Part shown: positions 1,694 to 36,600 of the stretch, one piece after another
Layout: the number at the start of each line of letters is the position of its first letter
Numbering within the stretch: position 1 is the stretch's first letter
Assembly: GCA_028673005.1 (NCBI GenBank)
Contig: CM054116.1
Location: 146,937,173 to 147,001,172 of the forward strand
Length of the DNA stretch: 64,000 nucleotides
Reading direction: 5' to 3'
Source: Tanypteryx hageni
Lineage: Eukaryota > Arthropoda > Insecta > Odonata > Petaluridae
Program-made: the position numbers and the translations under genes
The notes under the pieces: generated by a model
The model's input: only the letters and a program-made list of their open reading frames with translations
What the model was told of the DNA's origin: nothing
The model's database searches: none

Positions 1694-4600
1694 TTATTTA
1701 ACACAAACAGATTTCTCCAAGTACATGTGTTATAATAGATATAGAACAAGCACATATGACCATGCTCTCAACAGGATTCGAACCCGCAACCCTTGTATTG
1801 GGAGCTAGACATGCGAACCACCCCTCAACCAATTATTAAGTTTACATATTAAGTAAAAATTTTGGTTAAACAATTTATGTGCTACCTATGTTTGTTTGGG
1901 CTGATGTTATGGTAAAACCTGGTTAATTCGAAATTCGGAGGGCCAAAAAATTACGTAGAATCTATAATTTGAAATAAAAAAGTGTGCTTTATCAAATTTA
2001 AAAAATGCAAATATAAATTACAGAAAAACAAATGAATATGATGCCATATTAAAATACAGAAAAGAAAAGCATGTAGTATGCATACATTCCTCAAAATATG
2101 TCGATGAATAAAATCCAAATTTACAATTACGCATATCATTAATGAGGCCAGGCTCAACTCAGTGGAATTGACTCATATTGAAAAAAGAAGAACTTTGTAT
2201 TTCCACAAAATTTTGTGGAAATACAAAGTTCTTCTTTTTTCAAAATTACAATTACTCATTTAAATATTAAAACAAGCATATATGAGCATATAATTAAAAT
2301 CCACTAAAATGTTAAAAGTTTGTCAGTCACTTATTTCAACTTAAATCTAAATAAACGAAAGGTTGTAACAAAAGATTAATTTGAACTTATTTTAAAATCA
2401 CTTTTTTCCTGTTTCAATTTCGGGGTATGCAATGTGTTGCATAATGGTGTCAATTTTTTCACATATATCTATTGGCACGTCTGGCATCCCTGACACGTAT
2501 TGAAGGGTATCCAAAGCTTTAAAAACATCCTCCTTAGATGGATATGCACATCCAACCTATCATTGACATTGTCCTCATTGTCTTCTTCGTTGCTATGACT
2601 CGCAACGGTTTTTGGTTCGTCGAGCATGGGATCATACACAGCCAGCATAGCCAAGCCATTATTGAAGGAAACAAAGTCTCTGAAACTGACAGGCCCCAAT
2701 ATATTGCTGTTGATTACTTCCTCCACTTCTGTACCTTTGAACACTTCTGCCGCCTGTGAAGATATCCTGCTTTTCCTTGTTGGCGATGGTTTGAGGTCTG
2801 AGGAATCACCAATTGCCACGCCAGTGACAAGGACCGGCATGTGTCTAAAATCATCCCATGAACACCCATTTGTAATTTGCACCAAGCATGATGACAATAG
2901 TTTTTTTTCTGTAATGGCTATTTAAATTTTAAATGATTCCCAGGTCGAATGGCTGGAGAACACTGGTTGTGTTCGGCGGCAAATACAGTAACTCAACATT
3001 GGACGTACTTATCTGAGCCACATGGTGAACAGAGCAGTCGTCTAGTGGGAAATAATTTAGAAACAGGAAAAAATTCTGCTGTGACTAGGAATCAAACCCT
3101 GGTCTTCCACTTGCCAGGCGGATATTCTACCACTGAACTACCATAGCAGATAATTTTTCCTGTTTCTGAACGTGGGTTTCCTGTTTCAAAATAATTTCCC
3201 AAAATTACAGCTGACAGGATCTTTAGATCATATTATTCTATCAATTTCTGGCTTTGGTAATCTCACCATTTGAGAGGGAGGGATTTTCTTTGACGTTCTC
3301 TTGGAGGATGTCCATTGGGGCTGGTTGATACTAGAGTTGGGGACTGTGACTTTTTTCCTGTCACAGTGACAAACTGTTCCTGTGACAAAAAATACTTGTG
3401 ACTCATACCTGTTACTTGAGTCACCGGTGACTTTTTCATTGTATTGACCTTGTGCTGGTGGAGTTGGTGACAGTGGTAATGCCATAAAACCAAGTATCGG
3501 CCGATAACGAGTACTTACTTGGTAGCCTGGTGGTAGGTAGTATGTATTACATCAGTGACTAGTGAAGTAGTGAGCAAGAAAATTAAAAAAATTAAATAGT
3601 AAAACATTAGGTATATTTCAGATAATAATTATCTCTATTATATTACACAAAGAGAAATGTTTTGTTTACAGAGTTTGTATGGTTACTAACAACAATATAC
3701 AGTTAGTAATGTTAGTAAATAAACTTTCATATTTGCAATTAAAGTTACAATGCAATGAAGTTCATTGAATCTGAAAGAGAACATAATGATTTAACTCGAT
3801 AACTGAATGTACGATTATAGAAAGATCTGATGCTTTCCTGGCGAATCGATGAGGTAAAGAGTTCCCGGGTTTCTAGCCAGGTGAATACGTTGTCTACCGA
3901 CGTTTCGGCACCTTCCTCAAGTGCCATCTTCAGGGGTCTCCTGAGTGCCGTACCATTCTTTCGTCCATGTATATATACTACTCCGGTATTGGAGGCTCGT
4001 TCCCCATTGGCTGTTGGGTCGGCCTATAGCGTTCCGTGATTTTGGGGAGTATGGGATTCCACACCTTGCTGAGTGGGAATCCCGTGTCCCTGTTAATGTT
4101 GTTTTTTTCAATTCTGATTTCAATGGCTTCTTTCACTAGCCTATCCCAAAAACCGTTGGCCTTGGCAATTACTTTGGCCTCCGTGAAGTTAATTCGATGG
4201 GCTGTGGATATGCTGTGCTCTGCGATTGCCGACTTTTCTGGCTGATTTAGGCGGATGCACCTTGAATGCTCTTTGATTCGCGTTTCTATTGTCCGTCCCG
4301 TTTGGCCGATGTACTGCTTGCCGCACGAGCAAGGGATTTTATAAACTCCGGCTGTTTTGAGGCCTAGTTGGTCCTTGTTCTGCGGTAGGAAGCTGTGGAT
4401 TTTTGGCGGCGGTTTATGTGCCACCCTGATGCCTTGTCTGCCTAGAATCCTCGAGATCCTCCCAGAAATCGTTGACAGGAAGGGTATACATGCCGTGGCT
4501 ACTGGTTTTTCTTCCGGCTTCTTCTTCGCTTTCCCGGAAACGGCCCTTTTCAGGGCACTTGAGGAAGGTGCCGAAACGTCGGTAGACAACGTATTCACCT

Positions 4601-7600
4601 GGCTAGAAACCCGGGAACTCTTCACCTCATGAATGTACGATTATTTCATTTCAATAAGAGTCACATAGTGCATTTTGATTGGAAAATATGGAAGAGAATG
4701 ATGAATGATTGATTAATTAAATGTGATAAATAATTAAATTAATTATTGGAAGTCATTACTAGTTCTATGGCTGGAATCATTCATTTTCTCCCACGTATAA
4801 AATTGAAACGTCAAATGATCCAGCAATTCCTTTTAACATGTATCCCAGACAATTCGTAATCAAACTCTTATGGCAATACAGTAAATAAATCGCAAGGCCA
4901 AACCTTAGCCAAAGTTGATATTTTTATGCCTGAACCTTGCTTTACACATGGAAATATGTGGGGTGTTCAAGACATTTTTTAATCTATACCTTACGGATAA
5001 TATAAGAGAATGGGGGAGAAATATATAGATTTTTAATTGTTGTTTGCCGAGAGAACCGTCTTAGAGATCGATGTAAACAACATATGCGATGTTTTTCTCT
5101 GGATTTTCTCGATTTTTTTTCTACGAAACCATAACTCGTAATTATGTAGCCTCGCGGACCTTGTAGTAAATGTTGTTCTCTATTCGAATAATCTTTTTAA
5201 TCTATACCTTACAGATCATATAAGAGCTAGAGAGATAAAAGTTTGCTATTTCATTGTTGCTTGACGGATGCCATTTAACGAGATACTAGTATAAGGTTAT
5301 TAAAGTAATTGTGTAAAGTGGAAGTTCTAATTGACGAATTCAGTTGAAAACCACAATTGGGCGATAAGTTTTATTAAAGATCACTCATATATAATTAAAT
5401 TAAAACTCATCCAGCGGTTTAGGAGATGAAAGTTACGACGGACCAGACGTGCCCATAAGGCGTTCCGCTATTATCGCTTTGCTGGCAAAGAACGCCTAAT
5501 AATTCATCGCTGTTTCACGCAAAAAGAATAAATAAAATAGGTATGTTTAAAATAAGTTGTATAAATACACATAGTTTTGTGGAAATCTCCAGAAAAATTC
5601 AGGTAAATCCATTAAAAAGGTGAAAAGTTATGTATTTTTAAATAACTTCGCTCCAGAATAGTCAATTTATTTAAATATCCCCCGGTCTCCCAGATGGGTC
5701 TTATTAAAATGTCGCTGCACTTGAGGGGTTAACTAAACATGACAAAAATGTTGAAGGTAATTTTAATGAGAAAATCTTACCTTTGTTTCTATTTTCACAG
5801 TTGGGTGTTTTCTGCTAAGATGTTTCCGCAAATTAGTGACAGAAGACTTGAAGCTTAACTTTGCTTTGCACAAATCACACTTGGCCAGGCCTGGGATCTA
5901 TTTCAGTAAAAAACCGCCACAGCCTGCTCGTCCTCCGCTTTCCTAGCTCCATAGTACAGCACCTCCCAACACCGTCAATAAAGAATTAAGAACTCGTGGT
6001 TTAAAACATCTCCAGAAAAATAATTAACAAAAAGTTGAACATTCATGAGAAAAGTACGAGCAAGTACGATAAATGTGGCCATGGCAATGGCTTCAAAACA
6101 AATCCTCGTGATGTAACGATTATGTATGAATCGCGAGGAAACGAATGCGACCGAACGTAGTCAATCCAAGTCACAGACTGAAGTTTGAAGTATAGAATGG
6201 TTGTGGGAAACACTGCGTAGTGCATTTCCTCTTTGATTTGTATATATATTATTTGTAACAAACAACACGTTCGGTGACACCTCTCAAGAAATGCAGGCGT
6301 TAGGAAAAATGCGTGATAAAGTGGGAAAACGAAAAATTCATGGGTAAACAAGATGGTCCTTGTGACCCCAAGAGCATTCGTAAACATCCGAGTTTCTTCG
6401 ATTTGAGTTGGATACATGTTATTTAGTTCGTTAAAGTAAACAAATTTTCGACTAAAAGTAAAGTCATAAAATTAAATTAATTCGTTTAAGCGAAGATTCG
6501 TTCAACAAACGTTCATTGAACGAGTTACCTTACTGCACTGAGGGGTCGTCCATAAATGACGGCACGCAATTTTGGCGGATTATTGACCGCCCCTTTCCTC
6601 CGTCATCATATTTCGTCACAAAAACTCAGACCCCTTCCATTTATGTCATCACAAAGCTTTAACCCCCACCCAAAACACAAATTTTCATAAAATATTATTG
6701 GTTTGAAATCACTTGTTATTTAGAAAACGCAACAAAATAATAAAATATTGCATTCTGAATTACATAATACTTTCGTAAATATCTTTGAGTAGGCTTGTTT
6801 GTGCAATGATGTCAGATAAGTGATTTTCTCTCACTCTCATTATATATTGTTCTAAAAAAATGCTGAACCAAACACTTGCCCAGGCCAGAAGACCCTTTCC
6901 CTTTCCATTCAAGTGTTGACGCATGAAAAGAACTATTCATCTCAAGAGTCAGAGACGACACAGAGCAGATAAACAGTGCCTACATCCCCTCCCTCTACAC
7001 AGTTCCTCTCTGCCGTTGGGAAGAAGTTGGGACTCGGGTGAATGGGAGTGGGAGGAGTGGGACTAGGGACTGCGCCCTTCCTGTTCCACCGAGTCAGCAG
7101 TAACAATCTGTGACGGGCGGCCGGGCGGTGACTTCCATACCTGCTACTTTCCACGCATACCTGTTACCGGTCACAGTCTCATGTTAGTCACTGTGACAAA
7201 ATAGCAGTGACTGCAAATACTCCCCAACTCTAGTTGATACTAGCTTGGCTAGCTCGGACCCAACTAAGAAAAACACCCATGTTCAGAAACAGGAAAAATT
7301 ATCTGCTATGGTAGTTAAGTGGTAGAATATCCACCCGACAAGTGGAAGACCAGGGTTTAATTCCTGGTCATATCAGAATTTTTCCTGTTTCAAAATTATT
7401 TCTCAAAATTACAGCTTATGCCTATCTGCATAGGATCTTTAGATCACATTATCCGATCAATTTCCAGTTATCTAGTGTCAAAAACTTTTTTTTATTTTTC
7501 ACCGCCATACACCTTTGCTTTCTTATTAAAAATCTTTTGAATAGGTCTCTTGTCATCCATGCCTTTTTGTTATGTTTGTAAATTATCGGCAAATTATCAT

Positions 7601-9815
7601 GGTTTATACCTTTTAAACAGCATGGCTTGGCATATTTCCCAATATTTACAAGTTTTTCTTTATCTGACCCATCCATATTGGTACAGCGCATGGTAGTGAG
7701 ACGCTCGTTACATTTGCTGTATTGACATTTTTCACCTCGGAGAGCCAAAGTATGATCAGGCAACATGTTGAAAAGTATGGCCGTTTCATCCATATTATAA
7801 ATGTCCTTGGGGGTGTACTTCTCCAAAAAATGTTTATTACTTTGCAGCCAGTTCATCACTTCATCTTCATGAATTCATTCAAGGGAAACTGATTAAGTGT
7901 GGGCAAGAGTGGACAGAAACGAAAACGTGTGAGGGATAAACCGAGGGAGGGGAAGAATGGATGGGGAAGAACCAAGGAGGGATGGCCTGAGTCCAGCGAC
8001 AATACCCAACAACCTGTCGGCATGCTCACGATCGCACGTTTGTAAACAAGCCAGCGTGGCACGGGACATATTCATAAATTTGATTTAATTTCTTTTTCTT
8101 AAGTTTTATTTAGAATTATGTCCACAAAAATGCATTGGTACTCTGAATCAGGCTAAAAATTATTTCAAATTACAAATTATAGAGGTTTTCAAATTATTGC
8201 AACATATTTGTTTGGAATTCGCTTTTTTGGTCTTTTATGTGTTAAAAAATTTTGAATTATATCGAATTTCAAAATATGGAGGTTCAAATTAACCAGGTTT
8301 TACTGTATTAGCTCGAAAAGTTTACAATCAATGTCTTTATTGTTGTAAGAATGTATTGACTGGGCAATCATTTTATGTTATGATTTTGTATGCCATCATG
8401 CATATGTTGGTTGCCTTGAGGGTCATATTTGGACCTCGTATACCTTGTTCACTCATGGATTAAGTATAAGGCCTGTTTTTCATTTACCGATTTATTTTCT
8501 AGTCAGTTATAATTTATCTCCCGTTATAATAAACTGAATCGTGTTTTCATCAGATGCTTTTCTTAAGCCAGCGTGCAACTCTGCCACGCAGCTCCTACCC
8601 ACTTCTGCTTTTGAGAACGTGACATCCTTGGTTTGATGAAAACAATGACTTTGTAAGAGAGTTTAATGCTGTGTATATTGTGACGATTATTCAGTTTGAA
8701 ACATTCATGGCATCAGGTTTTGATGTGGTTTCGTTTTGCCTTGTCTTACCCCGCTAGGGGTTATTAGCGGGGCAGAGTTGGATATGAAGGTTGCGGGGTG
8801 TTGGAGAGAGAATCAGAGAGCGAGTCTCAGAGCTGTGGTGTTTTTGCGGATTGCATCATGTTGGTGGACTTTTGTGGTTTCAGTTTGGTCTTTGTTAGGT
8901 TTCCTCTTTTATTCCCACTTTCTTTCCTTTCCCTTTCCTCTTTACGTTTCCATAAGATCCTGGCATACCTACCCCTTCCGTTCCCAGTGATGATAAAGTG
9001 GTAGTGATTGCTATGTATTTTCTGAGGGAACTAAAAAAATTAAAAACATATACATATACCCTTCCTTCTCCCCATTCCAAGTGCAAGCAGAATAATCCCC
9101 TTTCCTTCTCCCCTTTATGCTTGCACTGGCACCCAACAACCTTCTCTCCTTCTCGCCGGGCCCACGACTGAGCAGACACCCCAGGTGAAACATTGTCTCC
9201 AATCCATATTTAACTGCTACAATGTGAGAAAATGAAAGAACAAATAGAAATCAACTTACTGCATGATGTAATTCATGGATGGCAAAGCAAGCAAAATGCT
9301 CCCACTCCTCTTCCTCGGTTATAAAATCACAAGCCAAATTCTGACAAAGGCAAGGCACGAAGTATGACAATAAAAAAGTTTGGAAACTATACTCTGTATC
9401 ACAAATTGGCTCGATTCATGCGATGGAGTATTTGAAACATAATGCTATACTTTGAACAAATGCACACCATAAAATATCAATACACCATGACTAGATTACA
9501 TCTCTTTGCTAAAAATTTCCTCCCCCCTCCGAACTAAGTTGGTGCGTTAACAAATGTATTTACGTGATTTTAGTATGACTAAATACTGCAAAAAAATATA
9601 TCTCTAATAACGCCATGGAAATATTCAAGTTTTATGAACTGATTAAATCACTTGTAATTAATAAAACAAAAAATATTTAAAATTGAGTACTTGTAATGTT
9701 TGTGTTTACATCCTTTTCATTGTCGTAGATAATCCATTTCCTTATGCTAACAAAATGATGCATGTGCACATAAGGCAATTAAACGTGTTTTCATAATTAT
9801 TGCCAACTTTTATAT

Positions 9816-9892
<77 letters not shown>

Positions 9893-12363
9893 ACGCATGG
9901 ACCTGACTCTCTCCTTTCCTTCACACTTAGTCTAAAAACCAACCCTCCCAAAGAAGGCTCTCTCACATCTGCCAACCCAAAACCCCCTCCCGGCCTTTCA
10001 CCTACCTTTTCCATCTTCAAACATCCTTCCCAATACATTCCACCCACCCTTCCTTCCCTACACCCGGTCGAACAATACCTCAATTATATCCTTTCCAGAG
10101 TCTCCCAACCCAACTTTTCCGATCTTATCGACCATACAGATAATCTTACCAGACGTGAAAGGCATGCCATTTCTACACTCAAACATCTTGACCATATCAT
10201 CATCCTCCCTGCTGACAAGGGCACCACCACGGTTGTGATGGATCGCGCCAAATATAACGAGGAAGCCGAGCGCCAACTTTCTGACGAAACCTCTTACCAT
10301 CACCTTACTTCCAACCCCACAGACCACCACTCCTACCAAATTTCGTCCTATCTTCATTCCTCAGGAAAACAGGAAGGCCTTCCCGTTTCCGCCATTGCTC
10401 TAATGTTCCCCAACAAACCCCGCACACCCACTTTTTACCTTCTCACTAAAATCCATAAACCCAACATCACCGGCCGCCCCATTGTTGCCAGCTTTAATTC
10501 CCCTACAGAACGCATCTCCGCCTTCATTGACTCCCAACTACAACCTCTCATTCGTCAATTCCCTTCCTTCATCCAAGACACTAACCACTTTCTCAAACAC
10601 CTCCCCTTTCCTCTCCCACCCAATACCATTTTGGCCACTATCGATGTCTGTTCCCTCTACACAAACATCCCCCACGATGATGGACTCTCCGCCCTTAGTA
10701 AACTCCTGGACTCAAGACCACCCGATGCAAGACCTTCCTCCCATTTCTTATTAGACTTGGCAGCAATGGTGCTCAAATTGATCAACTTCTCTTTCGATGG
10801 TCGTCACTACCTTCAAATTAGAGGCACTGCGATGGGCACCCGAATGGCGCCTTCATACGCCAATTGTTACCTTGGAGAATGGGAAAGACTCTTCCTCAAC
10901 GTTCCACTCACACCACTTTTGTGACTGAGATACATCGACGATGTCTTCCTCATTTGGACGCATGGACCTGACTCTCTACTTTCCTTTCTCTCGCGTCTCT
11001 CCTCCCATCCTTCACTGTCCTTCACCCACCAATCCTATACCTCCCACATCACATTCCTGGATGTCGATCTTTACCTTCAAGACAGCCAAATCCGCACCTG
11101 TGTTCACATCAAACCCACCAACAGCCTCCAATACCTCCACTTTGATAGCTGCCATCCCCTTCATACCAAAACCTCTATCCCCTATGCCCTTGCTCGTCGA
11201 GGATGGAGGCTTTGTTCCGATAGAGCATCCCTTCTAGAGTATTACTCTGTCCTCGAGGATGCTCTTCTCAAACGTGGTTACCCTCCAGTCTTGGTCCGCA
11301 AACAGATCCATAGGGCGATGACGCCTACCCACAATGGATCTCATCCTCACACACCCACTATTCCTGCATCTACCCCTCCACTCACTCTTACGACACTTTT
11401 CCTTCCTGGTATCCACGAAGCTCTCAAAACAATCCTTCATGCTGCCCACCCAATTCTTACCTCTTCCTCCCATCAGTCCCTCTTTACCAACCTTTTTGCC
11501 AATCCTCCGTTCCTCTCCTTCTGCCGGCCCCCAAACTTGGGAAATATCTTGTGGAGGAAGGAACTTCCTACTTCTACCACGCTTCTTGCAATAGGCTCCC
11601 ACCCCTGCGGAAAACCTCGCTGCCTCACTTGCCCTATCCACCTACCATCATCTTCTTTCTCGAGTCCCTCCACCAACATCACATACCCCATCACCTCCAG
11701 AAGCAACTGCACCACCCGTAACGTCATTTACCTCCTTACCTGCACCCTTTGTCCCGCGTTTTACGTAGGCCTCACCAGCAATCCGTTAAACAACCGAATG
11801 AACGGTCACCGGAATAGCGTTTCTCTCAGACGCCCCCTCCCAGTTGCATTACACGCTAATACCCACAATGTCCCCTTCAATAGTTGCTACAATGTTAGGA
11901 TTATTCGCGCTTTACCCTATGACACTCCTGCCCCCCTTCTCCGACACTGGGAACTAGCACATATCCATCTTCTCGGCTCTTTCTCTCCGCCTGGCCTCAA
12001 CCTCTGCTAACCCTATTAACCCCCTTACAATGTCTCCTTGTTACATTGTAGTTATTCGCACTTTCCCTTACCACACTCCCTCTTTATTGGCTATCCACCC
12101 CTCCTACTCCCCACCTCCTCCAATCATCAGCCTTCCCACATCACCCTGTCATTCCCCGCCCAGTGTGTCACTTTACGTTACTCTTTCTCTGAAGAAGGGC
12201 ATAGGCCCGATAAGCTTGCGTGTGTTTTTGTGTTCGTGTGTTTTACGTGTCTCTTCGACGCCCCCAGCAGCCTGCCAGCTTGGTCCTCAACTTGGTAAGT
12301 GTCCGCTGGGCTTTCCTCAACACCTTGTTGCCACCCTCATCACTACCTTTTCTTTTCCTTTAG

Positions 12364-12424
<61 letters not shown>

Positions 12425-12551
12425 ATGTCAACAAGGTGTTGGGCCTCGCCAACCTGAAGTCGTCTGATTGGTGAGTGCTCACTGGGTTTCCTCATCCCAA
12501 CACCTTGTTGACATCCATATATTCATTTTACCTTTCCTTTTCCGTAAGTTG

Positions 12552-12609
<58 letters not shown>

Positions 12610-12629
12610 ATACACACACATGCAAACAT

Positions 12630-12688
<59 letters not shown>

Positions 12689-15600
12689 TTGGACCCCATC
12701 TAATCTGAAAAAAATCCAAAGCTGCTTGTGTAATTAAGAGTTATTTAGTCACCTCAGCCACCAATTCCTTGGGCTGTAGCTGTGATAATTGTGTATTTGA
12801 ATTCATGTGGGAAGATAGACAAGCGTCAATCATAGCAACGAGATTAAACAAACTATTGTAATTGTTGATGGTGTAAGAGAACTTTATTTTAATGTGAATT
12901 TGTGTTGATACTAGCATTCCTACGTTTTTTGAAGGGTTATTTCTGCTAATAATTCTAGGTTTTTATTTATCATAATTATTATTGATAGTAAGTTTTTATT
13001 TATCTTAAAACTTTTTTTTTATTCATTTAAGATTATTCTAAAAACTGGTTTCCCTATGAGTTTCATTAAGAAATACATTTGGAAAATCAAGGTGTATGTA
13101 AGCTTTTGATGAATTTTATTATTATTATTAAATTCTTACCGCTCCTCTTATATTATTGTTTTATTCATGTATTTTATTATTAATACATTATAATCACATT
13201 CGTATTGCAATAATATTAATAATCATTAATGCGATCTTCTCGGAATAGTTCACATTGAAAATTCATTTGAACCCTACTTTAGATGACTATTTATGTAGTT
13301 TGTGCCATGAACATAATTTTATTCTTTGGAACTGTTCACTTGGCTTATTTTTTACTTTCGATGAAATCTTTTCTAATTATAGGCCTTTAAGACCAGTTGC
13401 TCTTGCATTTTTCTAAAAGCCCTCGCATTTTAGTATCATATTCCTATTTTTCACTATTTAACATAGATAATACTGTTGTAAAGGATGTTAATTTGAACAA
13501 ATTTAAATAAAACATTTTAAAGTTTTGTGTTGTAGCTTAGCAATTCTTCAGCTAACTATACTTATACACTGGTTTTATATGGATGGTTTATGTGATTGTT
13601 AGGAAAAGAACAATTTATTATTTTTGTCATTTAAGTTAGGTGACTAAAATATGAAATATTCAACTATTTCACTCCTACTAGTATCTAAAGCTGAATTACT
13701 CTGAACTAGCAATATATTTTCATTAATTTTAAGCAATATGAATGGACAAGTCAGTATTTTCATTAATGAAACAAAAGATACTATCAAACTTCTTACTACT
13801 TATATACCAAACATTCTTACGTTTGCCAGTGAGTTCTCAACTTCTATCTACCATTCTCACAACTGTAAAAAGATTAAAGTTTAAATAGAGAAACCCCCAC
13901 ATCACTCTAGGGCTGGTAGACACTTTTGCAAATTTTTACGTCCATTTAAGCAAAAAGGTTATCATAATTATATTTCTGAGTTTATTCATATTAGAGTATT
14001 AACTATATAAAAGTTGGTTATAAAAATTCATTTTTATATCTTCACTTGTAACTTATTTACTTCACTACCTGCCAGAGATGGAAGAGTTCTGGTTCTGGAA
14101 CTAAGTACCATTCCAAAATGGTTCCTGTTCCTGGATCCAGAACTGGAATAGAAAAATTGCTTCGGAGCTGGAGCAATGTTGTCAAAATTTACATTCTAGA
14201 ATGGTTCCCTTAAAAACAGAATAATGGATTGGAAGTTGATTCTTGATATTTTAATATTATCCGTAATCCAAAGAAAGAAATCTATTAGAAGAATGTTATT
14301 AAATAACTGAATTTGTTGTTTAATTAATCAAAGATGATTTTTTAAGACAATGACTCGAGAAAACTTGATGAATTTGAAGACGAAAATATAAATCCATTAT
14401 CATGATTCAATTAACAAAATAAAACTAAATCTTAATCAACTGCCAAATAATAGATAATTAGAAGAGTAATGATTAGCGCAGTCTGATCAGAGGTTTGTTG
14501 AAAGTGAAAATAGTGGTGCTAGCTCGGCAGAAGTATGAAGGAAGAGGTAGGATGACAGTTTTTATAGCTCTACCGCGACCAAAAGAACATTATGGGTGCA
14601 TAGTGGGTGTGGCCTAATCCCTCACTCCACTTGGCACCCTCCCCTCTCGCCCTTCCTTACCACACGAGCTATCACTGTCTCAATCATTTTCTAACTACGC
14701 TGTTGCCAATTATTCGCAAAACTTCGTCTAGGCAGCCACTGTAAATAGTGATAACTGACAACCTAAGGAGGAGAAGGATGGGCTGGTAGTGGGTTGGAGG
14801 AAGTCAAGATGACCGAGGGAATTTCCCCTCCCTGACAGAGATACTTCCCCTCCGTGTGCGGCTGAAATCCGTGCATGTTCTTATCTTTGTGGCATACCTA
14901 TAGTAATTTAAAGTGAATATTGAACCCAAAACATTACATTTCACAACTTGAGTGAAATTAGTTATGTGGATCAGCCTGCACTCTCCCTTTGAGAATTAGT
15001 GTACAAATTTGAAAATCCATTATGTAGAAAAAGTGTTAGTGTATTATAGGTATAATGGTGTCAAAAGTCATCGGAATATCAAGAATCTTGCATTATTTCA
15101 CCGTATTGCCTCCATATACCGTATTTAATCGATTGTAAGGCGACTTTTTTTTTACCTTTTCACCATCTCAGAAATTGCCACTCGTCTTAGAATCGGTGTC
15201 AAATAAAATAGTAATTGAATTTATTTCTTCAGTTACATTATAATGCAAGATATAAGCATTTTAAAGAATACGCAAACTATCTACTATAAAGAAGAATAAA
15301 AATGACCGAATAACTAAGACGAAATAAATTACGTAAATAATAAGAGGCGCGTCAAAGTTGTAATAATTGTGGTGGCAGTGCACGTATTCGTAGGCTTTCA
15401 CACTCCTCCACTAACTAAAATATTTCATTGTAGTGTCACCAACTTGACGTATTTTCCGCTAAATCTAGCTTTTTATCTAGATACCGTCTGCGGATTAGAA
15501 AAATGTAAGCTAGGGGATAGCGGATTTTTCGACTTAATTTTCACCAAATTGATGTTTCAGGTTTTTTTTGAATAAATAATTTTATCGTTAAATGTAACAA

Positions 15601-18600
15601 AATAAGTACTTACAAGTTTATAATGTTAAACATGCGACGATTTCTCCCGTTTTTTCAATTAAATAACGGACGCATCATTCATCAAATAAATAGTATTCTT
15701 AAACTACCTTCCTCGTATTTTATAGTCATTGCCACTCTCCACTCATTACATTGATAAAGCTATTAAGTATTCTTTCAATACTGTTTCAAATTCGCAAACA
15801 TACATCATGTATATAAACTCCGGTGTTGACAACACTGTTTACGTGTCTTGTGAGTGTCCTGTGATTCCCGAGTGAAATATTTCGTTTCGTTGTGAACAAG
15901 TGTAAACTTCTTATTTCTTAGCGAGTTTTTCGGTTTTTAATTACCCCATGATGGGACGAACGCATTACTCTGCGAACTTTAAGAGGAACGTTATTGCCTA
16001 TGCAGAAGAGACATCTAATCTTGCAGCACAACGGCGCTTTGGGATTGATGAATCAAATGTTAGACGCTGGAGGAGAGATAAAGAGAAGTTACTTAAGTGT
16101 TCAAGCAAAAGAAAAACATTTGGAGGCCCCAAGCAAGGACGTTACCATGAATTGGAGGAGATCCTTAATAACTTTGTGATTGATCAACGAAATAACTGTT
16201 TGCCAGTGAACTCCGAGATTATACAAACAAAAGCTCGTGAAATTGCTCGAGAACATAAAATTAGTAGAAGTGAGTGTAAATTTAGTCGGCACTGGGTACA
16301 GCTGTTTATGAAACGATGGGGACTTGTTCTTCGTCGTCGTACATCAATCGCCCAAAAACTGCCAGCTGATTACGAAGAGAAACTAATTTCCTTTCAACTC
16401 GCTCGATGGCACAGAAGATGACGTTTTGTGGGATTAGGAGAGTGAAAAAGAGTCGTCGTGTGAAGATATATTTTAGTAAAAAAATATGTTAATGTTGTTG
16501 CAATTTCTGTTTTTAATCTTTATTTAATTACGAACTGAAAATCCGCCACATTCATACTTGTTGGAATATCGAGATAAATAGTCCTAATTGACCAAAAATA
16601 TTTTTTTTTCCTTGCGTGGACTTGTGAAAAGTGGGGGTCAGCTTAGAATCAGTGTCGGCTTATAATCGATTAAATACGGTACTTCTTTAATCTTTTATCT
16701 CTTCTGTTATATGAGTTACATTCCAATTTTGTCTAATTGTATGTTATTTGTTATAAGATAATCTTTTTCGTCTCGTATGCATATTGTTTCATGCAGTCTC
16801 TTACAACAATACATTTTTCACTGATATTTTTATCATTTATACAGTTGTAATCTAGACATCATAAGGTAAAATAGAAGAGAGAAATTAAATAATATTCATT
16901 TATTAGATGAAAAATTTACTCATTTAAAAATCCGTAAACTTTAAATGCATTTTATGGTGTTTTTAATAGTTGTCACTTGTCTAGTTTTCACATGGATAGC
17001 CTCAATTTACATGATGCATTTGCAATTGAAAGAAGGTTTCATATCGCTTTTTGATTTCCTGTTGGTTATACAACAACCTTGGGTCGAACTCTAGTATCAT
17101 CAGCAAGATGATGTTGGCATAGCCAGGTCTTTACGAAAGGCACTACATCCCAATCTGTTAAAGATTTCCTCAATATTTTTATAGTCATCAGATTGGACAC
17201 ACGGCTAATTATGTTTACTTCTTTCACATGTGGCTATTAACGTTTATTACACTAAAACCTTGTTCAGCTTCTGCGCTGCTGATTGCAATTGTGTTAGCTA
17301 TTTTCTTAGCTTTTGCAATAGTAGTAATGCTTGAAGTGAGAAAAAAGGAAGCGAGAAGGTTTACCGAAACTAACCTAATAAAACCAAGTTTAGGTTAGAT
17401 GAATCTACATCTAAATAAATTGATGTGTCCATCACATGACTTTCTCCATTTTTAAGTTGTAAACTAAAATCAAATAAATAACTGCCTACAACAAGGGTCA
17501 ATTCACCTTTGCCATCACTACCACGCACGCGAGTTGCCTACTAACCGTCATTAATGAAAAAATTTAATATCTCTTGAAATATTCCTTCTTGAATTATTTC
17601 AATGGCTGCAGTGGATGAATGAGGTTGAATATTGTCATGATGCACAAGAACACCTTTTGACAGCAATCCTCTGCGTTTACTGTGAATAGCACAAACTTGT
17701 GATATTTCAGGTTATTGTGCATGATTGAATATGCAGATCCATAGCTGATGTCAAACATTTCGGCAACAGCAGTAACAGTAATGTCTGTTTTCTCATATGA
17801 GAGCATTTACTCGATCAACATTGTTTGCTGTTCTTGAACTTGTCGGGTGGCCTTAACGGTCTTTGTCAAACAAACTTGTTCTGTCACTTTTGAACCTTTC
17901 CACCCATTTGTACATTTTTCTTTGACTTCTACACTTTTCACCATACTGTGCTAACATTCTCCCGTAAATCTCCAAGGGTTTGACCTCTTTCGACCACAAA
18001 AATCTGCCGACAGCACCTTGTTCACTGATGGTGCAATTGGAAAGCTGAGCTGACATATTTAGCCCTCAACTGTACAAGACACGATGAGCACCGGCTACTG
18101 GGAAGACACATTTAGACTTGTTTAACTCTATAGTAAGTTTGATGATGTAGAGGGTGTGTTCTGACATTGTGTATTATTCTCGAATGCAAATTGCCTTTAC
18201 TTTTTGATTTCCTCTAATAAACATCAGACTTGACACTGTTTTTAACAGAAGTGAATTTCGAATTGAAGAGATGATAATGTTCATAGTACTGAACGACCGC
18301 TCACATTCAGCCGTTGATATAATCAATGTATTTACAGCTGTTTTAAGTGGCTGAAGGTCTTTTGGAATATGACTGTAGTCATCATTCATTACGAATTCTC
18401 GAAAGCCCTGAACAGATGTACTTTCACAGACATTGAATGTTTCTAGCCAATTCACGAATATGTTTATCTCCAAAACATGGATTACCTTTCCTATCAACAG
18501 GCCATTCTGATGTATTAAAAATATCTAAACCATGGATAAGTTTTGCATATTTTTCTTTGTCAACGTCTTTGTACTTATGACAAATGTCAGAAGCCGTTGT

Positions 18601-21600
18601 TCTAAACAATCATTTATTTACATTTCACTTAATTTTTCAAAAACGTTTCCCTATTGATTTCTGGTACTTTCTCAGGCTTGGAACTCTGATTTATCGGCAG
18701 CATTTTGCACAACTTCATAATACTCGCCAGAATTTTGTGTCATAGATTTAAACACATGGTATTTCATGGAAATTAGTTTATGAGCCTCTGAAAGAGTTAT
18801 AGACCTGTCTTGTAATTTAATTGATAAGTATTCAAGTTCTGTCAACACATCCAACATGATTCCCATATTTAGTATAAAATTTATGTCACTTAACTTCTTT
18901 TGAAGCCCTCTGTACTGTGCTCGTTCACTTGCAGATCATTTTTGATTAAATGATGATTCATAAAAATGATGTGGCAGAACTCGATAATTATTTCAAACAG
19001 CCTTCACGGAACGTGCGCTTGATGATACCCATCGGGTACCCAAAATACGTCCTATTGAATTTAATTTGACACAACACCTGCACAACAGATTCAAGTTCAG
19101 ACTTGTTTTTAGGAGATGCACTATAAATGACATACAGTTTGTCTAAAGATATCTTCATATGGCATACTGCAGAAATTTCTTGAGGAACATCATTCAGAGC
19201 TAACTCCAGGTGATGATTGCTACAATGCCAAACTATTAAGCTAGGGAATTTATCCACAAACTTTTGAGCGGCACCAGCATGTTTTCCTAGCATCTTGGAA
19301 AGAAACCCAATTTCTTAGTAGAAAATCATCTTCAAAGCTGTGATTTTATATAACTTCCAGAAATGTTTCCACAATAGTAGTAGCTTCTGTGTTCTTCAAT
19401 TCTACAATGTCGAAAAAGAAACTACTTACATCAACTGATTCTGGCAATTTTACATGTAAGCATATCACTAGCGCGATCTTTTTGCTAATAGTGGTACATT
19501 CATCGACCATGAATCCAACCTTTTGATCATTGTCTAATATGAACTTGACCAGTTTTTTGCACATTTCAGTTGCAATATGATGAGTTATGTCTGCACAAGT
19601 ATGGGCACTTTGTAAAATCCATCCCATTTCCAGACCATTCGTTACTTGAAGGTCAATTATGCTGATAAATCTAACATAGGACGATTTGACTTTGCAATGT
19701 AATAAACAGTGCGAAATACGCGACATGTAGTTTTATAATGTGTTAACTTCATTTTTGCATTTGCGGATTCTATTGAGCTCTTCTTAGCCAGAGGAGCTAT
19801 TTTTGCAGAGTGACTGCTGCTTTTTTCTTTTGTATCTCCATATTCCTTAATTGTCCCACTCAGCTGCTAATTTTAGGCCTTGGGTTGCTATTGGTCCTAA
19901 TTTTCCTACCATTTCTAGTAATTGTCAACCACTCGTAAATTTTAAGTTTTTCATGCCACTGAACATCTGACAAGTAATCCAGAAAATGTTCTTCATATTT
20001 TCATGATAAGTATTTTGTATGTATACTGGAACATGTGCCGCCAGATCCTGCATCTTCAACAATTATCACAGATTTCGTTTTTTCTTCTTTTTTATTATCG
20101 AGTATTGAGTTTTATTTTTTAAAATTCAAGAGCCATTTATCCATTTTTATGAGGGTTTTTAGTTATATAGTTTTATAAACATCTCATGGACACACACAAT
20201 AACACACAAAGTACCAAAGTATGCACAATGTGAACAACATGAACTACCATGAACCTCGAAAACTTCGGCTCCGATTAAAGCCAAGGGGAAAGTAATTGTA
20301 TTATAAGTATTTTATCCAAAATTGTATTATTTTTTATAAAATTAATAATTTTATTCTGTTAAATTTTGGACAAGTGACCTTGATCACGCAGTAAGTTATA
20401 TGATGTGAAATTTATTGACAATGAGTCATGTAATTGATGGAAAGATATGATCCGAAGATCCTATGCAGACAGGCATAAGCTGTGAAAGATGGAACAATTT
20501 TTGAAACGAGAAAAAAGTCTGCTATGACCGGGAATTGAACCCGGGTCTTCCACTTGCCGGGCGGATATTCTACCTCTGAACTATCGTAGCAGAACATTTT
20601 CTCTCGTTTCTGAACACGGATGTTTCCCTTGGTGGGACGGGAACTAACCAAGTTAGTATCAAACTGCCCCAACAGATGTCCTCGAAGAGAATATCGAAAG
20701 AAACTCCTACCTCTCAAATGGTGAGATTGCCAAACATGAAATTGATGGAAAGATATGATCCGAAGATCCTATGCAGACAGGCATAAGCTGTGAAAGATGG
20801 AACAATTTTTGAAACGAGAAAAAAGTCTGCTATGACCGGGAATTGAACCCGGGTCTTCCACTTGCCGGGCGGATATTCTACCTCTGAACTATCGTAGCAG
20901 AACATTTTCTCTCGTTTCTGAACACGGATGTTTCCCTTGGTGGGACGGGAACTAACCAAGTTAGTATCAAACTGCCCCAACAGATGTCCTCGAAGAGAAT
21001 ATCGAAAGAAACTCCTACCTCTCAAATGGTGAGATTGCCAAACATGAAATTGATGGAAAGATATGATCCGAAGATCCTATGCAGACAGGCATAAGCTGTG
21101 AAAGATGGAACAATTTTTGAAGTCATGAGTCATGTAATGTTGCCACCTGGCATGTAGCCAAATTGCAACTCATTTAGTAAATAAATAAATAAACTGCAAA
21201 AAGCACAAGTTAATTAAACTAACTAAAATGTCAAATGTGAACATAGTTCATTTCAAAGAAAAGATATGCTATTTATTCATCAACAGTGCGAAAGATGACT
21301 TTGTCCGTGTTTATTAAAGTATACATTTTAAAATATAAATTGTATTACATTTAAAAATGAATATCGTTTCATATTTTGGCATTTAAAATGAACGTTGTTA
21401 AATATTGGTATTGAAACATCAAACACATTAATTCAGTTAGCATTGTTTATCTATATAAATAAAAGCCTTACTCTGTTTGTGTCTGATGCTGTGTGGCACT
21501 TTTAACGCGTTTTTAGCAAACTTCCCGATTAGGTGGAAGGTTGACATTTTGCAGTAATGTTTGATTCAGATATGAAAATTATATGATGAAATATAAATAC

Positions 21601-27600: not shown

Positions 27601-30600
27601 GAGTAAGTTCGTCAGCGTGGTCGCGTCGTCATCGTAATGGAGGAGTTGGGGATTGTGATCTTTGCGGTTAATGGGTGGAATATGCACATTGCTAGAATCT
27701 TAGCTGTAATGGCGGTATGGAGTCGTCAAAATAGGAATCGGGTAATTATAGAATGAAAATTCTGGAAAAGTGCGCATACTAATTATTATTCTTTTAATAT
27801 TTTGGCGAATGAAAATGTGACCGATTAGTATGCATTGAAAGGCTTAAATTGTTTTATATATTTAAAATTCTAGTTTAAATTTTACTAAATATTTTTCCGT
27901 AGCAAATTCGAGGCATGTATTGCAACAGCCGACTAAAAACTTTTCTGCTGCAGTTCGTTAGATGTCCACATCTGAATTTTAGAAAGCATTTTCGGTAAGA
28001 GGTACTGGTTTTATTGGATTTTATTATATTTTATTGTCTATAAGGATTTTACGACTAATTTTATTGTTTCAGAATAACGAGAAATAGTTTTGCTGAATTG
28101 CGCCGAATATTATACCCTGAGGATTATACCGGATGGAGTACAGAAATAGAACTAATGTTATTTCTATGCTGGCTAGGATCTGCTGTATCCTATAGAATGG
28201 TGTCCCTGGCATTTGGAATACCGAAATCGACAGTGTGCGATATCATTCACAGGGTGCTTGACAGAATAATTTTGGTTCTGCCAAGTATTATTTGCCATCC
28301 TGACGCCATCGACTTACAAGAAAATGGAAATAAATTTGCTGAACTTGCTGGCAATGCTGCATTCAGTCATGTTGCTGGATGCATTGATGGATGCCACATT
28401 CGTGTCTTGTGTCCCAAAGCCGTCCAAAGAGATTATTTAAATAGGAAGTTATTTTATTCAATAAGTTTACAAGGTGTTTGCGATTTTAATAAGAGATTTA
28501 TTAATGTGTTTTGTGGCTTCCCTGGTTCAGCCCATGATTCCAGGATACTGAGGAACAGTCCTCTCTATTTAAATGGAGTTTTCCCTCCAGAGGGTTATAC
28601 CTTATTGGGGGATTCAGGCTATCCCTGTTTGGAGAACCCCATAAGGATAATCACACCATATAGGGATCCACAAAATGAATCGGAAATAGAGTTTAATAGT
28701 TTGCTTTCAAAGTGTAGAATTAAAGTGGAACACACTTTTGGCATGATGAAGGTCAGGTGGAGGACTGTATTCCACAAAGCTCTGGAAGTTAATGTAAAGA
28801 CAGCAGTAAAAGTGATAGCGGCCTGCTCTGTTATGCATTATATATGCATAGCTGAAGGAGACTTGATACAGAATATCGGTAATGTACCAGCTCTGCAGCC
28901 ACGTCGAGGCCATGTTATGGAAGGGAATGGATTTGATTTAAGAAATACATTACTAGAGGAATATATATATAATAGACAGTAAAAGATTTTAATTTTAGTT
29001 TCATTTTTGGAATGAAGATTGTCATCATTGGTTATATATGCAATGAAGTGCTCCCTGGTAATATATATATGTAATACATGTTTGTCATTTTATTACACAA
29101 GCACCACTGCTCTTTGGCAGCTTGATTGTGCGTGATGCTGAAATTGCATTTACTAACATCATTAATTTAATTTCTTTTTAAATGATATGAGGAAATTACT
29201 AATAACTTAACAAGAGAGGGGATAATTTCATAAACTATTTTAATTTAAAAATAATCTTTTTGTATAAACAAGTATGAAAATTAAAAGTAAAGTACTCCTT
29301 TAGCCAAACAATTAGAGGGTTACAACACGCAATGCATTTCACCCACAAGGTGGGCATCGTCTGAAGATGCCCACCTTGTGGGCAAAATGCATGTAATCCT
29401 CTAATTGTTTGGCTAAAGGAGTACTTTACTTTTAATTTTCATACTTGTTCATACAAAAAGATTATTTTTAAATTAAAATAGTTTATGAAATTATCCCCTC
29501 TCTTGTTAAGTTATTAGTAATTTCCTCATATCATTTAAAAAGAAATTAAATTAATGTTAGTAAATGTAATTTCAGCATCGCGCACAATCAAGCCACCAAA
29601 GAGCAGTGGGGCTTGTGAGCGCCAGGTTAGGAACTCTTGTTATAGACCATCGAATAAATTGCTATGTATTACTATAGATGCAATTCATAAATAACAAATA
29701 AATAAATGACATCTGGTTTGCTAATGTATCAAGATATTGTAACATTTTTGATTTGATGTGCCAAGTTAACTGCAAAAACAATTCCATAGACAAAATTTTT
29801 TCAATTAACAGCATAATTGTTTAAATAAAAATAACTAAGTATGGCTAGATAAAAATGACTAATTTACTAACAAATTAATTTAACTACCAATTCTGGTGAA
29901 AAATATTTACAATAGAAATTTTGTGGGGCAATTCAGTTAGTTACCACCCTTGGTAAGATTGAGGTGCAAAATAACTTAGTAGTCTGAGGGTTAAACAGAA
30001 TAGCTTGGACCTAGGAAATGCCATGCCATAGGAATTCATAAACAAAAAATATTTATTTTTAATAGATTTATTTTTTTTCAATATGATGAACAAGTCTATT
30101 CAACAGCTCAAGATGAGCCCTCTCTTGGCCAACAAGCTCCTCCAACATTTCTTCCACTCCTGCCCTTTTCCTCTTTCTGGAATATGTAGTGGAGATGATA
30201 CCCCAAAAGAAGGTAAAGAGGATGAAGGGGAAACAGTGGGGTCAAAGGTTTGGGAAGATGATTGAGGAAAGGGTTGGGCAGGTGGCTGGAAAGATGGTGT
30301 AGGGGAGTCAGAGGATATAAGGAGAGGATGATGTATGATAGGTCTTTGGCCCAGGTGCTCATCCAACACCTTGAAAAAAGGCCAGGAAATTGGGGTATCA
30401 TCTCCATCTTCCCAACCCTGGCCAGTTTTGGGCCTCTTCAATTCCTGTTTGTAATAATATGAAACATTTTCACAAGCAATTTCATAAATAGTACTCATAA
30501 TTGTATCAAGACATACTTGAAATCACATACCTTATATTTCGTCAATAAATTCTGCCACTTCTTCTTAATTTGTTCCACATTCACCTTATTGACTAATTCT

Positions 30601-33600: not shown

Positions 33601-36600
33601 AAAATTAATGTTTATGTACAACTGCATTTCATTTTAATTTATACAAAATAAATGACTGACTCAGAAATAATATCTTTATTTTTTCACCATTTCTTGCTAC
33701 GGATTTGTGTCTCGAGGACTAGACAGTTAAAAAATATGGGTCGGCTCGGACAAGTAGACCTGTGCAGGTGTGAGCCTGCAGGTACGGGTCAGGTGCGGGT
33801 TAGTATTCTGCGGGTACGGGCTAGTAGTCTGCGGGTACGGGTCCGGTACAGGTTAGTCTGCGGTGAGAAATTAGGCCAAAATCTTTTTTCTGTTTTGACA
33901 GTCTGTTAAAAGGGATTCGAGTAAATATGGTACAGTAAAATTCAGTTATAATGCGGGTCTCGGGAGATGAAGTTTACCCCCGCGTTATCGGCAACCCGCG
34001 TTATTACGGGAAGCTTTGTGGGGAATAATTAAAAACCTGTAAAACTAAATTTTATAACAAATTTATTTTCAAAATACAAAAGTAAGTGATGTTTAATGAT
34101 CCACGTGCATGCCCTACTTTAACGGGAGTTATTAAAATACTCCGATGTTTTCTTTTGGCGGAACAATTGATGGCGTTTATTTGTCACATACGTCTTAATG
34201 TTTTGCAAATGTAAAAGATGGAGATGATCGCAATCGCTCTGTCTCTCTAACCAATCCATCACTTCACTGATGTTCTCCAATACTTTTCCTATTTTCGGGA
34301 TTTCAAGCTCGCATTCGTCTTCTACTTCTTCACTATCGCTCTCATCTTCTGATAAAAAAACTGTTCTTCCGCGGCTCTGGACTGCAGCCACAATTTCTTC
34401 ATCTTTCTTATGGGCAGCTACAAGAGTTTCATTATCTTCATGCATCGAGATCATTTACTTGTAGAGTGCAATCAGCAAAAACATTTGAAGCTTCACGCTC
34501 GTCTTCTTCCGTAAAACCCAAAAACTCGTCTTCATCTTCTATGCTATCGTCCGCTGCCGCTACGCACTTCAACCAGATATTTTGAATTGCAGAAGAACTT
34601 ATGTTCTTCCATGCCAATCCGACATTGTAGGCCATATTCTTCAGAGTGACCGTTTTCAGGAATTGTTGTACTTGCAGTTCTGCGTTTATGACAGCAGTGA
34701 GCAATTCCCGCTGGTAGTAGGCTTTAAATGCTCTGATAATCCCTTGATCCAAGGGCTGGATAATGGCAGTGGTATTTTTTGGTATAAACATAGCTACAAT
34801 TTTCCATCTCTTGATTTCAAAAACTCGGAAGAAGGATGTGCAGAACAGTTATCCAGCAGAAATAGTGCTTTTTCTTCCAATTTTTTTGACTGTAAGTGAC
34901 TCTTTACCGATGGTACAAAATCTTCATTGAACCACGATATGAAAACATCGCGAGTCATCCAGGCATTCTTACTGTTTTTATAAATGACTGGTAGAGATGT
35001 CAAATTAACGTGCTTGAAACACCGAGTACTTTGGTTTTTACCAATACAGAATGGTTTTAATTTGTGACTTCCTGATTTGATAGTGCAGAGTAATAAAGTC
35101 ACCCTTTCTTTGCTCATTTTCATACCGGGTTTATTTGCCGACTTCTTAATATATAGCAACTTTGTTGGAAGCATTCTGTAGTAGAGTGTAGTTTCTTCAC
35201 AATTATACAATTGCTCTTCAGTGTACTCACCCTCATCGATCATCTTGCATAAAGTTCCACAGAACTCTCTTGCTGCTTCACTGTCATTGGAACGAGATTC
35301 TCCTATGCTGACTTGCACTATCCCGTGACAAATTTTCCACCTCAACAACCAGCCAATAGAAGCAACAAAATCATCTGCGCTGCCAATTTGCTTATTAAAT
35401 TTAACTGCCTGTGCTGGTAAAAGTGGCCCAGATAATGGAACACCTTCACTGCGCTTCTGAGCAAACCACGTAAACAAACATTCATCCACAATACTTGCAT
35501 CACTTAATCTGGCCTTTTTTCTATCGGGGCCTATTTTGTCATCCACTTGATCAACGAATGATCGTAATTTGTCTTTCTTTCATCCAACCACGAATTGTTC
35601 CTTCAGGAACACCAAACTCCCGGAATTAGCTTGCTTTTGAATCACCGCGTTTCACCCTGTTGATTATGCTCAACTTTTCTTTAATTGTGTCAGTTTTCCT
35701 TTTGGTAGGTATCGTTATAGCCCTAAAATCGACGAAAAATACGTGTAATCATGAGTCACCAACGACCGGATAGATACGATCGCTTGCAGTAGCGCCGTCG
35801 GTAGGCGCATCGAGTTAAAATTCGCTACAAAGTTACTATGTAACTACTAACGAAGAAAATAAATGGAATCATTTTGGGGGACACGGCACAACCCGCGATA
35901 TATCCAAAACCGCGGTTAAATGAGGCGCATTATAACCGAATTTTACTGTATATGTAAACTGCAGTTAAATGAGGTGCGTTATAACCGAATATTACTGTAT
36001 ATGTAAACTAGAGGAGGACGAATGCAAAATTTTCTCGAATCCTTCATATAAGAATAATAAGAAGAAAAAAGAAAAAACTTTTACTTAAAATTAACAGTTT
36101 TTAATTAAAGAAAAATTTGAAATCTGCGTTTAATGAAAAATAAATTTAAGAATACAGTTTTTAAAAATACACCTATATTTATTAAGAAGATACAAATGAA
36201 ATTTTGTTAATGAAGTACATAATTAAAACTCTTGAATCTTGAGGTTCATTTTCTCAACATAATTTGAGAAAAATATTTGAGTATCAGTTCAAATTTTTTG
36301 CATTTTTCCAAAACCTTTTTAAATCAAAGCAAGTGTAGAGGGGAGAGTATTATTTCAAGAGTTAACATAGATAAACACTAAACATGGAACACTAAATTCT
36401 CTCTAGAAAATTAAGAAAAATCAAAAACTTGTTTATTTTAATAGTTCATAAAAGTACTGAACACTGAACACTTTTAGGACAATCTAAAAGAGCAGAAATC
36501 TTCAATGGAGGTTTTTATTTAAGAAAACTAGCATTCGAACTCGCTCTGGGTCGCCACGAGGTGATATTGGTGATCCAGGTACCACTGAAATTGCAACAAT

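What the first reader, a model, noticed from the sequence alone, without database searches (positions are those of the whole stretch)
3077..20898. A 71-nt tRNA-like cloverleaf on an extended, covarying helix, in four copies
Copies at 3077-3147 (-), 7305-7375 (+), 20520-20590 (-) and 20828-20898 (-) can all be folded as a 71-nt tRNA-like cloverleaf, each with an added helix of about 17-20 bp below the acceptor stem. In the 20-kb copies this helix reads gaaacgaga/tctcgtttc; in the 3- and 7-kb copies gaaacagga/tcctgtttc. Two base pairs therefore changed on both strands, which suggests selection on RNA structure. The module lies in the middle of its repeat unit, not at a 5' end as in usual tRNA-type SINEs.
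Basis: partly seen in the sequence, partly recalled or inferred. Interest (0 to 1): 0.75.

Follow-up and report, generated by a model that had tools for sequence, protein, structure and literature searches.

The report
tRNA-bearing Penelope-type mobile repeat
The four tRNA-like folds are the centre of a 308-base jumping repeat that an animal genome carries in many near-identical copies; its insertions have the ends of Penelope-type retrotransposons, which suggests that a Penelope enzyme copies a small, repeatedly read RNA with a tRNA inside it.

Summary
In detail: four 71-nt tRNA folds sit at the stated places on extended helices. In the 1.68-Gb genome the module is phases 151-221 of a 308-bp unit in dispersed arrays of about 1-10 units. 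I mapped 40 young insertions. Of 29 two-armed (head-to-head) ones, 28 have one outer end at site P1 and the other at P2, about 60 nt apart; 28 of 29 carry exact 12-17-bp target duplications. In older copies 9 of 16 two-armed are P1/P2, 1 P2/P2, 6 unclear. This is the anatomy of Penelope-like elements (PLEs): two internal RT start sites, both strands primed. Seven variants in six insertions are in every unit, on both arms in the three testable cases; two exceptions. So one monomer, perhaps a circle, was read repeatedly. RT stops pile up at the 3' edge of the tRNA fold (23 of 69, expected 3.6). The claimed covariation is one subfamily split, not above shuffles. No hammerhead was found. Best reading: a non-autonomous, PLE-mobilised, retrozyme-like repeat with a tRNA domain. 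The partner PLE was not found: the genome search did not complete.

The parts
20427..21121 (-). young insertion: tandem array of about 2.3 units of 308 bp, one-armed; outer end at P2 (phase 6), 5' end at phase 236
   Evidence: locus L009
20421..20434 (.). target-site duplication, left copy (ATGAGTCATGTAAT), overlapping the P2 end
21125..21138 (.). target-site duplication, right copy (ATGAGTCATGTAAT)
20520..20590 (-). tRNA-like domain (phases 151-221), 61.2 bits
20828..20898 (-). tRNA-like domain of the next unit, 61.2 bits
20597..20610 (-). 5' arm of outer helix (phases 131-144); same arm of the next unit at 20905-20918
20503..20516 (-). 3' arm of outer helix with T6 (phases 225-238); same arm of the next unit at 20811-20824
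3052..3334 (-). older, rearranged insertion: '-' piece 3052-3179 with P1 end, joined to an inverted '+' piece 3177-3334
   Evidence: locus L005
3077..3147 (-). tRNA-like domain, 50.7 bits
3060..3073 (-). 3' arm of outer helix (5' arm at 3154-3166)
7230..7464 (+). older one-armed insertion, P2 end at 7464
   Evidence: locus L001
7305..7375 (+). tRNA-like domain, 41.8 bits, missed by ARAGORN
7286..7298 (+). 5' arm of outer helix (3' arm at 7379-7391)

Best explanation
[not shown]
For: 28 of 29 two-armed young insertions are P1/P2, none P1/P1 or P2/P2, one is P2/other; 11 are one-armed (9 P2, 2 P1). Exact TSD of 12 bp or more in 28 of 29 two-armed and 3 of 11 one-armed insertions; random flank pairs reached 10 or more in 2 of 400. 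Older copies, found with the hairpin alone: 16 of 28 two-armed, of which 9 P1/P2, 1 P2/P2, 6 with an end elsewhere. Changes in all units: L070 10/10 (both arms), L072 4/4 (both), L073 3/3 (both), L065 4/4, L078 6/6, L074 2/2 twice. 23 of 69 5' ends in phases 223-238, binomial P 3e-13, interval chosen afterwards. Inner junctions share 1-6 nt in 15 of 29, abut in 2, and have inserted bases in 12 (read). Same anatomy in print: head-to-head inverted pLTRs, a 31-bp tail optionally at one of them, TSD, partial tandems (PMC3846280, passages); a purified PLE that cuts and extends both strands and starts RT at two adjacent internal sites that bound the tail (PMC11167929, parts 1-2 of 4). PLEs occur in this genome: the ORF at 9797-12010 has relatives that carry PF00078 and PF01541. 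Pol III A and B box matches in the young tRNA domain (consensus recalled).
Against: No partner PLE with a matching RT start region was found; the search did not complete. The unit shows no blastn match (E 1e-4) to the two PLE remnants of the window, and those remnants themselves gave 0 Pfam families at E 1e-3. No RNA evidence at all. Two insertions break the one-monomer rule (L019 3/4, L077 2/4). Eight of 11 one-armed insertions lack a clear TSD. A T6 run directly after the tRNA should stop Pol III, so the template may not be a Pol III product. The tail is longer (about 60 against 31 bp) and TSDs are longer (12-17 against 8-10 bp) than in the A. vaga passages read; the Anolis work saw no strand difference in start site.
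Confidence: 0.78

Rival explanations
1. Same PLE-type element, but the template is a linear multimer transcribed from a genomic array (or a terminally redundant linear RNA with strand transfer), with no circle.
For: Tandem genomic arrays exist to be transcribed; Frangieh et al. propose an mRNA of several copies as PLE template; L077 (2/4) and L019 (3/4) are not what one circle gives.
Against: Seven variants are in every unit of six insertions, on both arms in the three where both arms cover the site. Two P1 arms end at P1 after 616 and 925 nt, i.e. 2 x 308 and 3 x 308 + 1. An already uniform parent array would also give this, so the case is not closed.
Confidence: 0.4
2. Ordinary tRNA-derived SINE moved by a LINE, later arranged in tandem and inverted by recombination.
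For: tRNA-Gly-like domain with A and B box matches (51 of 71 positions shared with a recalled tRNA-Gly-GCC); TSDs of SINE-like length.
Against: tRNA is central, there is no fixed 5' end, no A-rich tail is in the printed junctions (LINE similarity was not searched), and two different outer 3' sites lie on opposite arms in 28 of 29 insertions.
Confidence: 0.06
3. Foldback or MITE-like DNA transposon, the hairpin arms being terminal inverted repeats.
For: Near-perfect inverted arms around the module; arms changed together between subfamilies.
Against: 68 of 69 outer ends lie at P1 or P2, the two ends of an insertion differ from each other, and copies are multimeric with variable inner ends.
Confidence: 0.03
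4. Compensatory changes show selection on a functional host or element RNA.
For: Two adjacent pairs changed on both sides between subfamilies; 94.9% of cells paired, reached by 4 of 500 shuffles; 5' ends at the fold.
Against: Pairs changed on both sides are not above shuffles (219 of 500), nor clearly the covariation score (67 of 500), and they reflect one split; arms of a DNA palindrome can be co-converted; position 231 is an aligned gap in 20 of 43 copies.
Confidence: 0.2

Closest known systems
Penelope-like elements (PLE; Penelope/Poseidon), pLTR arrays and solo pLTRs
   Same: Head-to-head inverted terminal repeats, tail at one end (two RT start sites), TSD, partial tandems, palindromes in the pLTR (PMC3846280 and PMC11167929, passages and parts seen)
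   Different: No ORF; 308-bp unit only; a tRNA-like domain inside the palindrome; tail about 60 nt; no hammerhead found
Metazoan retrozymes (small tandem repeats with type I hammerheads, circRNAs)
   Same: Small (150-450 bp) non-autonomous tandem repeats, TSDs longer than 4 bp (PMC7229834, part 2 and passages seen); here one monomer seems to be read repeatedly
   Different: No hammerhead or other Rfam ribozyme; tRNA-like domain instead; RNA not tested
tRNA-derived SINEs
   Same: tRNA-related part with Pol III box matches, TSDs
   Different: tRNA central, multimeric, inverted arms, two alternative outer ends
Helenus (TRIM with a tRNA-like sequence in its LTR; Kojima 2024, PMC10886601, abstract and outline seen)
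   Same: tRNA-like sequence placed inside the terminal repeat of a non-SINE retroelement
   Different: Helenus has LTRs, PBS, PPT and 4-5-bp TSDs; here 12-17-bp TSDs and PLE-type ends
Short non-autonomous Penelope elements of heliconiine butterflies (PMC6685494, two passages seen)
   Same: Short non-autonomous PLE
   Different: No tRNA domain or circle mentioned in the two passages seen

Membership tests
Non-autonomous Penelope-like element | Head-to-head inverted repeats with outward 3' ends | tested here: met
   29 of 40 young insertions two-armed, with '-' left and '+' right
Non-autonomous Penelope-like element | Tail at one of the two ends (two adjacent RT start sites) | tested here: met
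   28 of 29 two-armed young insertions P1/P2; older: 9 of 16, 1 P2/P2, 6 unclear
Non-autonomous Penelope-like element | Target-site duplication | tested here: met
   12 bp or more in 28 of 29 two-armed and 3 of 11 one-armed
Non-autonomous Penelope-like element | Sequence shared with an autonomous PLE of the same genome | not tested
   protein search of G000 did not complete (31 attempts); no blastn match to the two remnants in the window
Autonomous Penelope-like element | ORF with RT and GIY-YIG | tested here: not met
   308-bp unit; none of the 15 ORFs of 150 aa or more in the window overlaps the three insertions
Metazoan retrozyme | Small tandem repeat of 150-450 bp with TSD | tested here: met
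   308 bp, about 1-10 units, TSD 12-17 bp
Metazoan retrozyme | Self-cleaving type I hammerhead | tested here: not met
   no ribozyme family among the 21 Rfam matches at E<=1 (window) or the 48 at E<=10 (1001 bases of L070)
Metazoan retrozyme | Circular RNA in vivo | not testable with these tools
   no RNA data; indirect support from variants shared by all units
tRNA SINE (LINE-mobilised) | tRNA-derived head at the 5' end and LINE-like or A-rich 3' tail | tested here: not met
   tRNA at phases 151-221, variable 5' ends, two 3' sites; LINE similarity not searched
tRNA SINE (LINE-mobilised) | Pol III A and B boxes | tested here: met
   pattern match at positions 8 and 50 of the young domain (consensus recalled); transcription not tested
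Helenus / TRIM | 4-5-bp TSD, two LTRs, PBS, PPT | tested here: not met
   TSD 12-17 bp, no LTR pair in the mapped insertions; PBS and PPT not searched

The most novel reading that the evidence does not exclude
A tRNA-bearing counterpart of retrozymes: a 308-nt RNA circle made without a ribozyme, by host tRNA-processing or ligation acting on the tRNA-on-a-clamp fold, and read round by a PLE enzyme that primes one DNA strand at P1 and the other at P2 of the same circle.
Probability: 0.25. Interest if true: 0.82.

Novelty: new variant of a known kind. Interest (0 to 1): 0.6.

Why it matters
How PLEs complete an insertion is largely open: Frangieh et al. [quoted passage not shown] This family gives a large, young, natural set of products. 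It indicates that the two DNA strands are primed at two different sites, one each, and that a single monomer can be read many times. If a partner PLE is found, both points can be tested in vitro. It would also add a tRNA-based kind to the small tandem retroelements that are known from hammerhead retrozymes, and it shows that some of what tRNA finders call tRNA genes in such genomes (here 3 ARAGORN calls) is mobile-element DNA.

Tried and rejected
Rejected: SINE, MITE or foldback element, TRIM (see membership test). Twin priming by a LINE would fix one outer 3' end only (recalled); here both outer ends are fixed. Hairpin arms as the place where the two antisense cDNAs anneal: an early, rough mapping suggested it for L011, L064, L074 and L031; exact mapping leaves at most L031, so I dropped it. 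Stops at the second meeting with the hairpin (8 of 28 P2 arms are 382-399 nt long) are explained by the choice of sample: the 40 young insertions are those that best match a 311-base query and so hold a full unit. Covariation as proof of selection: rejected. A first hairpin alignment (A1) was cut at the ends and was not used for counts. Viral contigs and genome contigs hold no exact match to the tRNA core pattern. Paper searches for a tRNA-bearing or non-autonomous PLE: among the titles and abstract starts listed none describes one with a tRNA domain; the lists were capped, the papers behind them mostly unread, and subscription journals mostly not held.
Full report
What is there. The four 71-nt folds are real. 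The two at 20 kb are neighbouring units of one tandem array, 20427-21121, period 308 bp, 2.3 copies. I number the unit by phase 1-308 on the strand that carries the tRNA: tRNA 151-221, outer arms 131-144 and 225-238, a T6 run at 225-230. The leader TCT (148-150) pairs with AGA (221-223), so the acceptor stem is extended by 3 bp. An internal loop of 3 against 1 nt follows in the young copy, then 14 bp. The minimum-energy fold shows all four tRNA arms only in the 20-kb copies.

Which tRNA. The fold scores up to 61.2 bits as a tRNA. Over its 71 positions it shares 51, without gaps, with a tRNA-Gly-GCC that I recalled from memory. The loop reads CCGGCAA, so ARAGORN names it Ala(GGC); position 33 is C, not U, which speaks against a decoding tRNA (general knowledge). 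Matches to the Pol III A and B box consensus are intact in the young copy (consensus recalled).

The genome. The window lies in an assembly of 1.678 Gb in 1022 contigs. It is unnamed. The best relative of a Penelope ORF of the window is an unnamed protein; the best named ones (44-46% class, P0002 at 46%, P0006 at 42%) are from Schistocerca, which does not name the host. A search with the hairpin of the 7-kb copy gave 3552 candidates, of which 40 were scored. A search with the 20-kb unit gave 1764 candidates, of which 40 were scored, with 176 matches, many at 99-100% identity. These are lower bounds.

Forty young insertions. They are the 40 insertion places in the listing, whose weakest lines were cut (loci L009-L038 and L059-L082, fetched; the window's 20-kb array is one of them), mapped base by base. 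The query was 311 bases, so they hold a full unit; this bears on arm lengths but not on which site an arm ends at. Twenty-nine are two-armed: the left flank is reached by a '-' piece and the right flank by a '+' piece, so RNA 3' sides face outward on both sides. Outer ends fall at phases 243-258 (P1) or 307-8 (P2), apart from one at phase 51. Of the 29, 28 have one P1 and one P2 end, one has P2 and another place (L014), and none has P1/P1 or P2/P2. Eleven are one-armed, 9 P2 and 2 P1. L020 also holds an extra '-' piece beyond about 330 bp of other sequence and was counted by its outer ends; it could be two neighbouring insertions.

Target sites. The longest exact flank repeat is 12-17 bp in 28 of 29 two-armed insertions (the other, L013, has 8) and 12-14 bp in 3 of 11 one-armed ones; 400 random flank pairs reached 10 or more twice. 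So two arms go with a duplication, and one-armed insertions mostly lack it, as if the second strand had not been primed (inference). The base composition of the targets was not tested. Inner junctions share 1-6 nt in 15 of 29, abut in 2 and have 1-25 (L020 apart) inserted bases in 12 (read), as in end joining.

Older copies. Twenty-eight of the about 40 places found with the hairpin alone, 73-88% identical to the young unit by piece, were mapped to a unit of their own subfamily with somewhat wider end classes. Sixteen are two-armed: 9 P1/P2, 1 P2/P2, 6 with at least one end elsewhere. Twelve are one-armed: 7 P1, 5 P2. The pattern is thus older than the young burst, though less exact. The window's 3-kb copy (P1/other) and 7-kb copy (P2, one-armed) belong here.

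One template per insertion. Private changes found in no other mapped insertion were classed by the number of units that carry them (exclusions under Tried and rejected). Six are in all units (L065 4/4, L072 4/4, L073 3/3, L078 6/6, L074 2/2 at two neighbouring sites). To these I add L070, 10/10, left out only because the same change is also seen in one unit of L065. In L070, L072 and L073 both arms carry the change; in the other three only one arm covers the site. Two are intermediate (L019 3/4, L077 2/4). Thirty-one are in one unit only, as expected of later mutation or copying error. So a monomer was the bottleneck for these six arrays, and in three the same template served both arms. A circle is the simplest account. 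Not excluded: a linear RNA with repeated ends and strand transfer, or a parent array already uniform.

The fold in the template. Of 69 cDNA 5' ends, 23 lie in phases 223-238 (expected 3.6; P 3e-13) and 17 in 222-230 (expected 2.0); the intervals were chosen after seeing the ends. That is where an enzyme coming from P1 or P2 has entered or passed the AU-rich outer helix and meets the extended acceptor stem. Units with a longer T run (L011, L060, L062, L073) suggest slippage there. Folded as a circle the unit has -83.5 kcal/mol against -70.4 +/- 4.6 for 100 mononucleotide shuffles, a weak control. A second cluster of 5' ends lies at 253-260, next to P1 (8 of 69, read from the list), also noticed after the fact.

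Covariation. On 32 hairpins, 94.9% of cells pair (shuffled mean 94.5; 4 of 500 reach it), and far fewer pair when partners are slid (39-54%). But only 3 pairs change on both sides against 2.4 in shuffles (219 of 500 reach it), cells changed on both sides are reached by 48 of 500 and the covariation score by 67 of 500. Position 231, the partner of 138, is an aligned gap in 20 of 43, in three of which a T rather than the C seems lost.

Comparison with what is known. In A. [quoted passage not shown] The Anolis PLE protein cuts and extends both strands and starts RT at two adjacent internal sites whose interval is the tail (PMC11167929, parts 1-2 of 4); that paper saw no difference in start site between top and bottom strand in vitro, whereas here one arm uses P1 and the other P2. 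Metazoan retrozymes are 150-450-bp tandem repeats with hammerheads and circRNAs (PMC7229834, part 2 of 6 and passages). The present unit fits the size, tandem form and TSD but has no ribozyme that Rfam reports.

PLEs in the window. The ORF at 9797-12010 has relatives with PF00078 and PF01541 (RT and GIY-YIG by recall), and the fragment at 3978-4640 matches one of these weakly (32% over 84 aa), but neither gives a Pfam family itself. They show no blastn match to the unit.

Mechanism. Shown: ends, duplications, uniform arrays, 5' ends at the fold. Inferred: PLE enzyme, RNA circle, promoter role of the tRNA, clamp against RNase P and RNase Z. The T6 run right after the tRNA should end Pol III transcripts, so the long template may come from read-through or Pol II; this is the weakest point. 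The decisive search for the partner PLE did not answer in 31 attempts.

Noticed in passing
window 9797-12010 (+): Penelope-type ORF in two stretches split by one in-frame stop; 44 relatives found, several with PF00078, PF01541 and PF26215, though the ORF itself gave no Pfam match.
   Followed up: partly
window 3978-4640 (-), with inverted repeat 3849-3925 / 4554-4630: Fragment of a second, probably Penelope-type ORF with a 77-bp, 98.7% inverted repeat beside it, perhaps itself a PLE insertion scar (label partly recalled).
   Followed up: partly
window 2175-2246: Near-perfect palindrome of 72 bp (97%) that draws chance miRNA-like matches in Rfam.
   Followed up: no
window 3331-3342 (-) and 7222-7233 (+): The 3-kb and 7-kb copies share CCCCAACTCTAG at one edge of the unit although their pieces point opposite ways; cause unknown.
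   Followed up: no
window 28059-28982 (+), 15906-16421 (+), 34794-35579 (-), 2469-2921 (-), 45149-47927 (-): Long ORFs that look like Harbinger-type and pogo/Tigger-type transposases and a LINE (labels recalled, not searched).
   Followed up: no
L011, L060, L062, L073: Units with an expanded T run at phases 225-230 inside otherwise uniform arrays, as if RT slipped where it stalls.
   Followed up: partly
L019 and L077: Arrays with a private change in 3 of 4 and 2 of 4 units, against a simple one-circle template.
   Followed up: partly
L064 and L074: Two separate insertions share the same inner junction (phases 111 and 253 with 3 nt in common); independent microhomology or copying of an already inverted RNA.
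   Followed up: no
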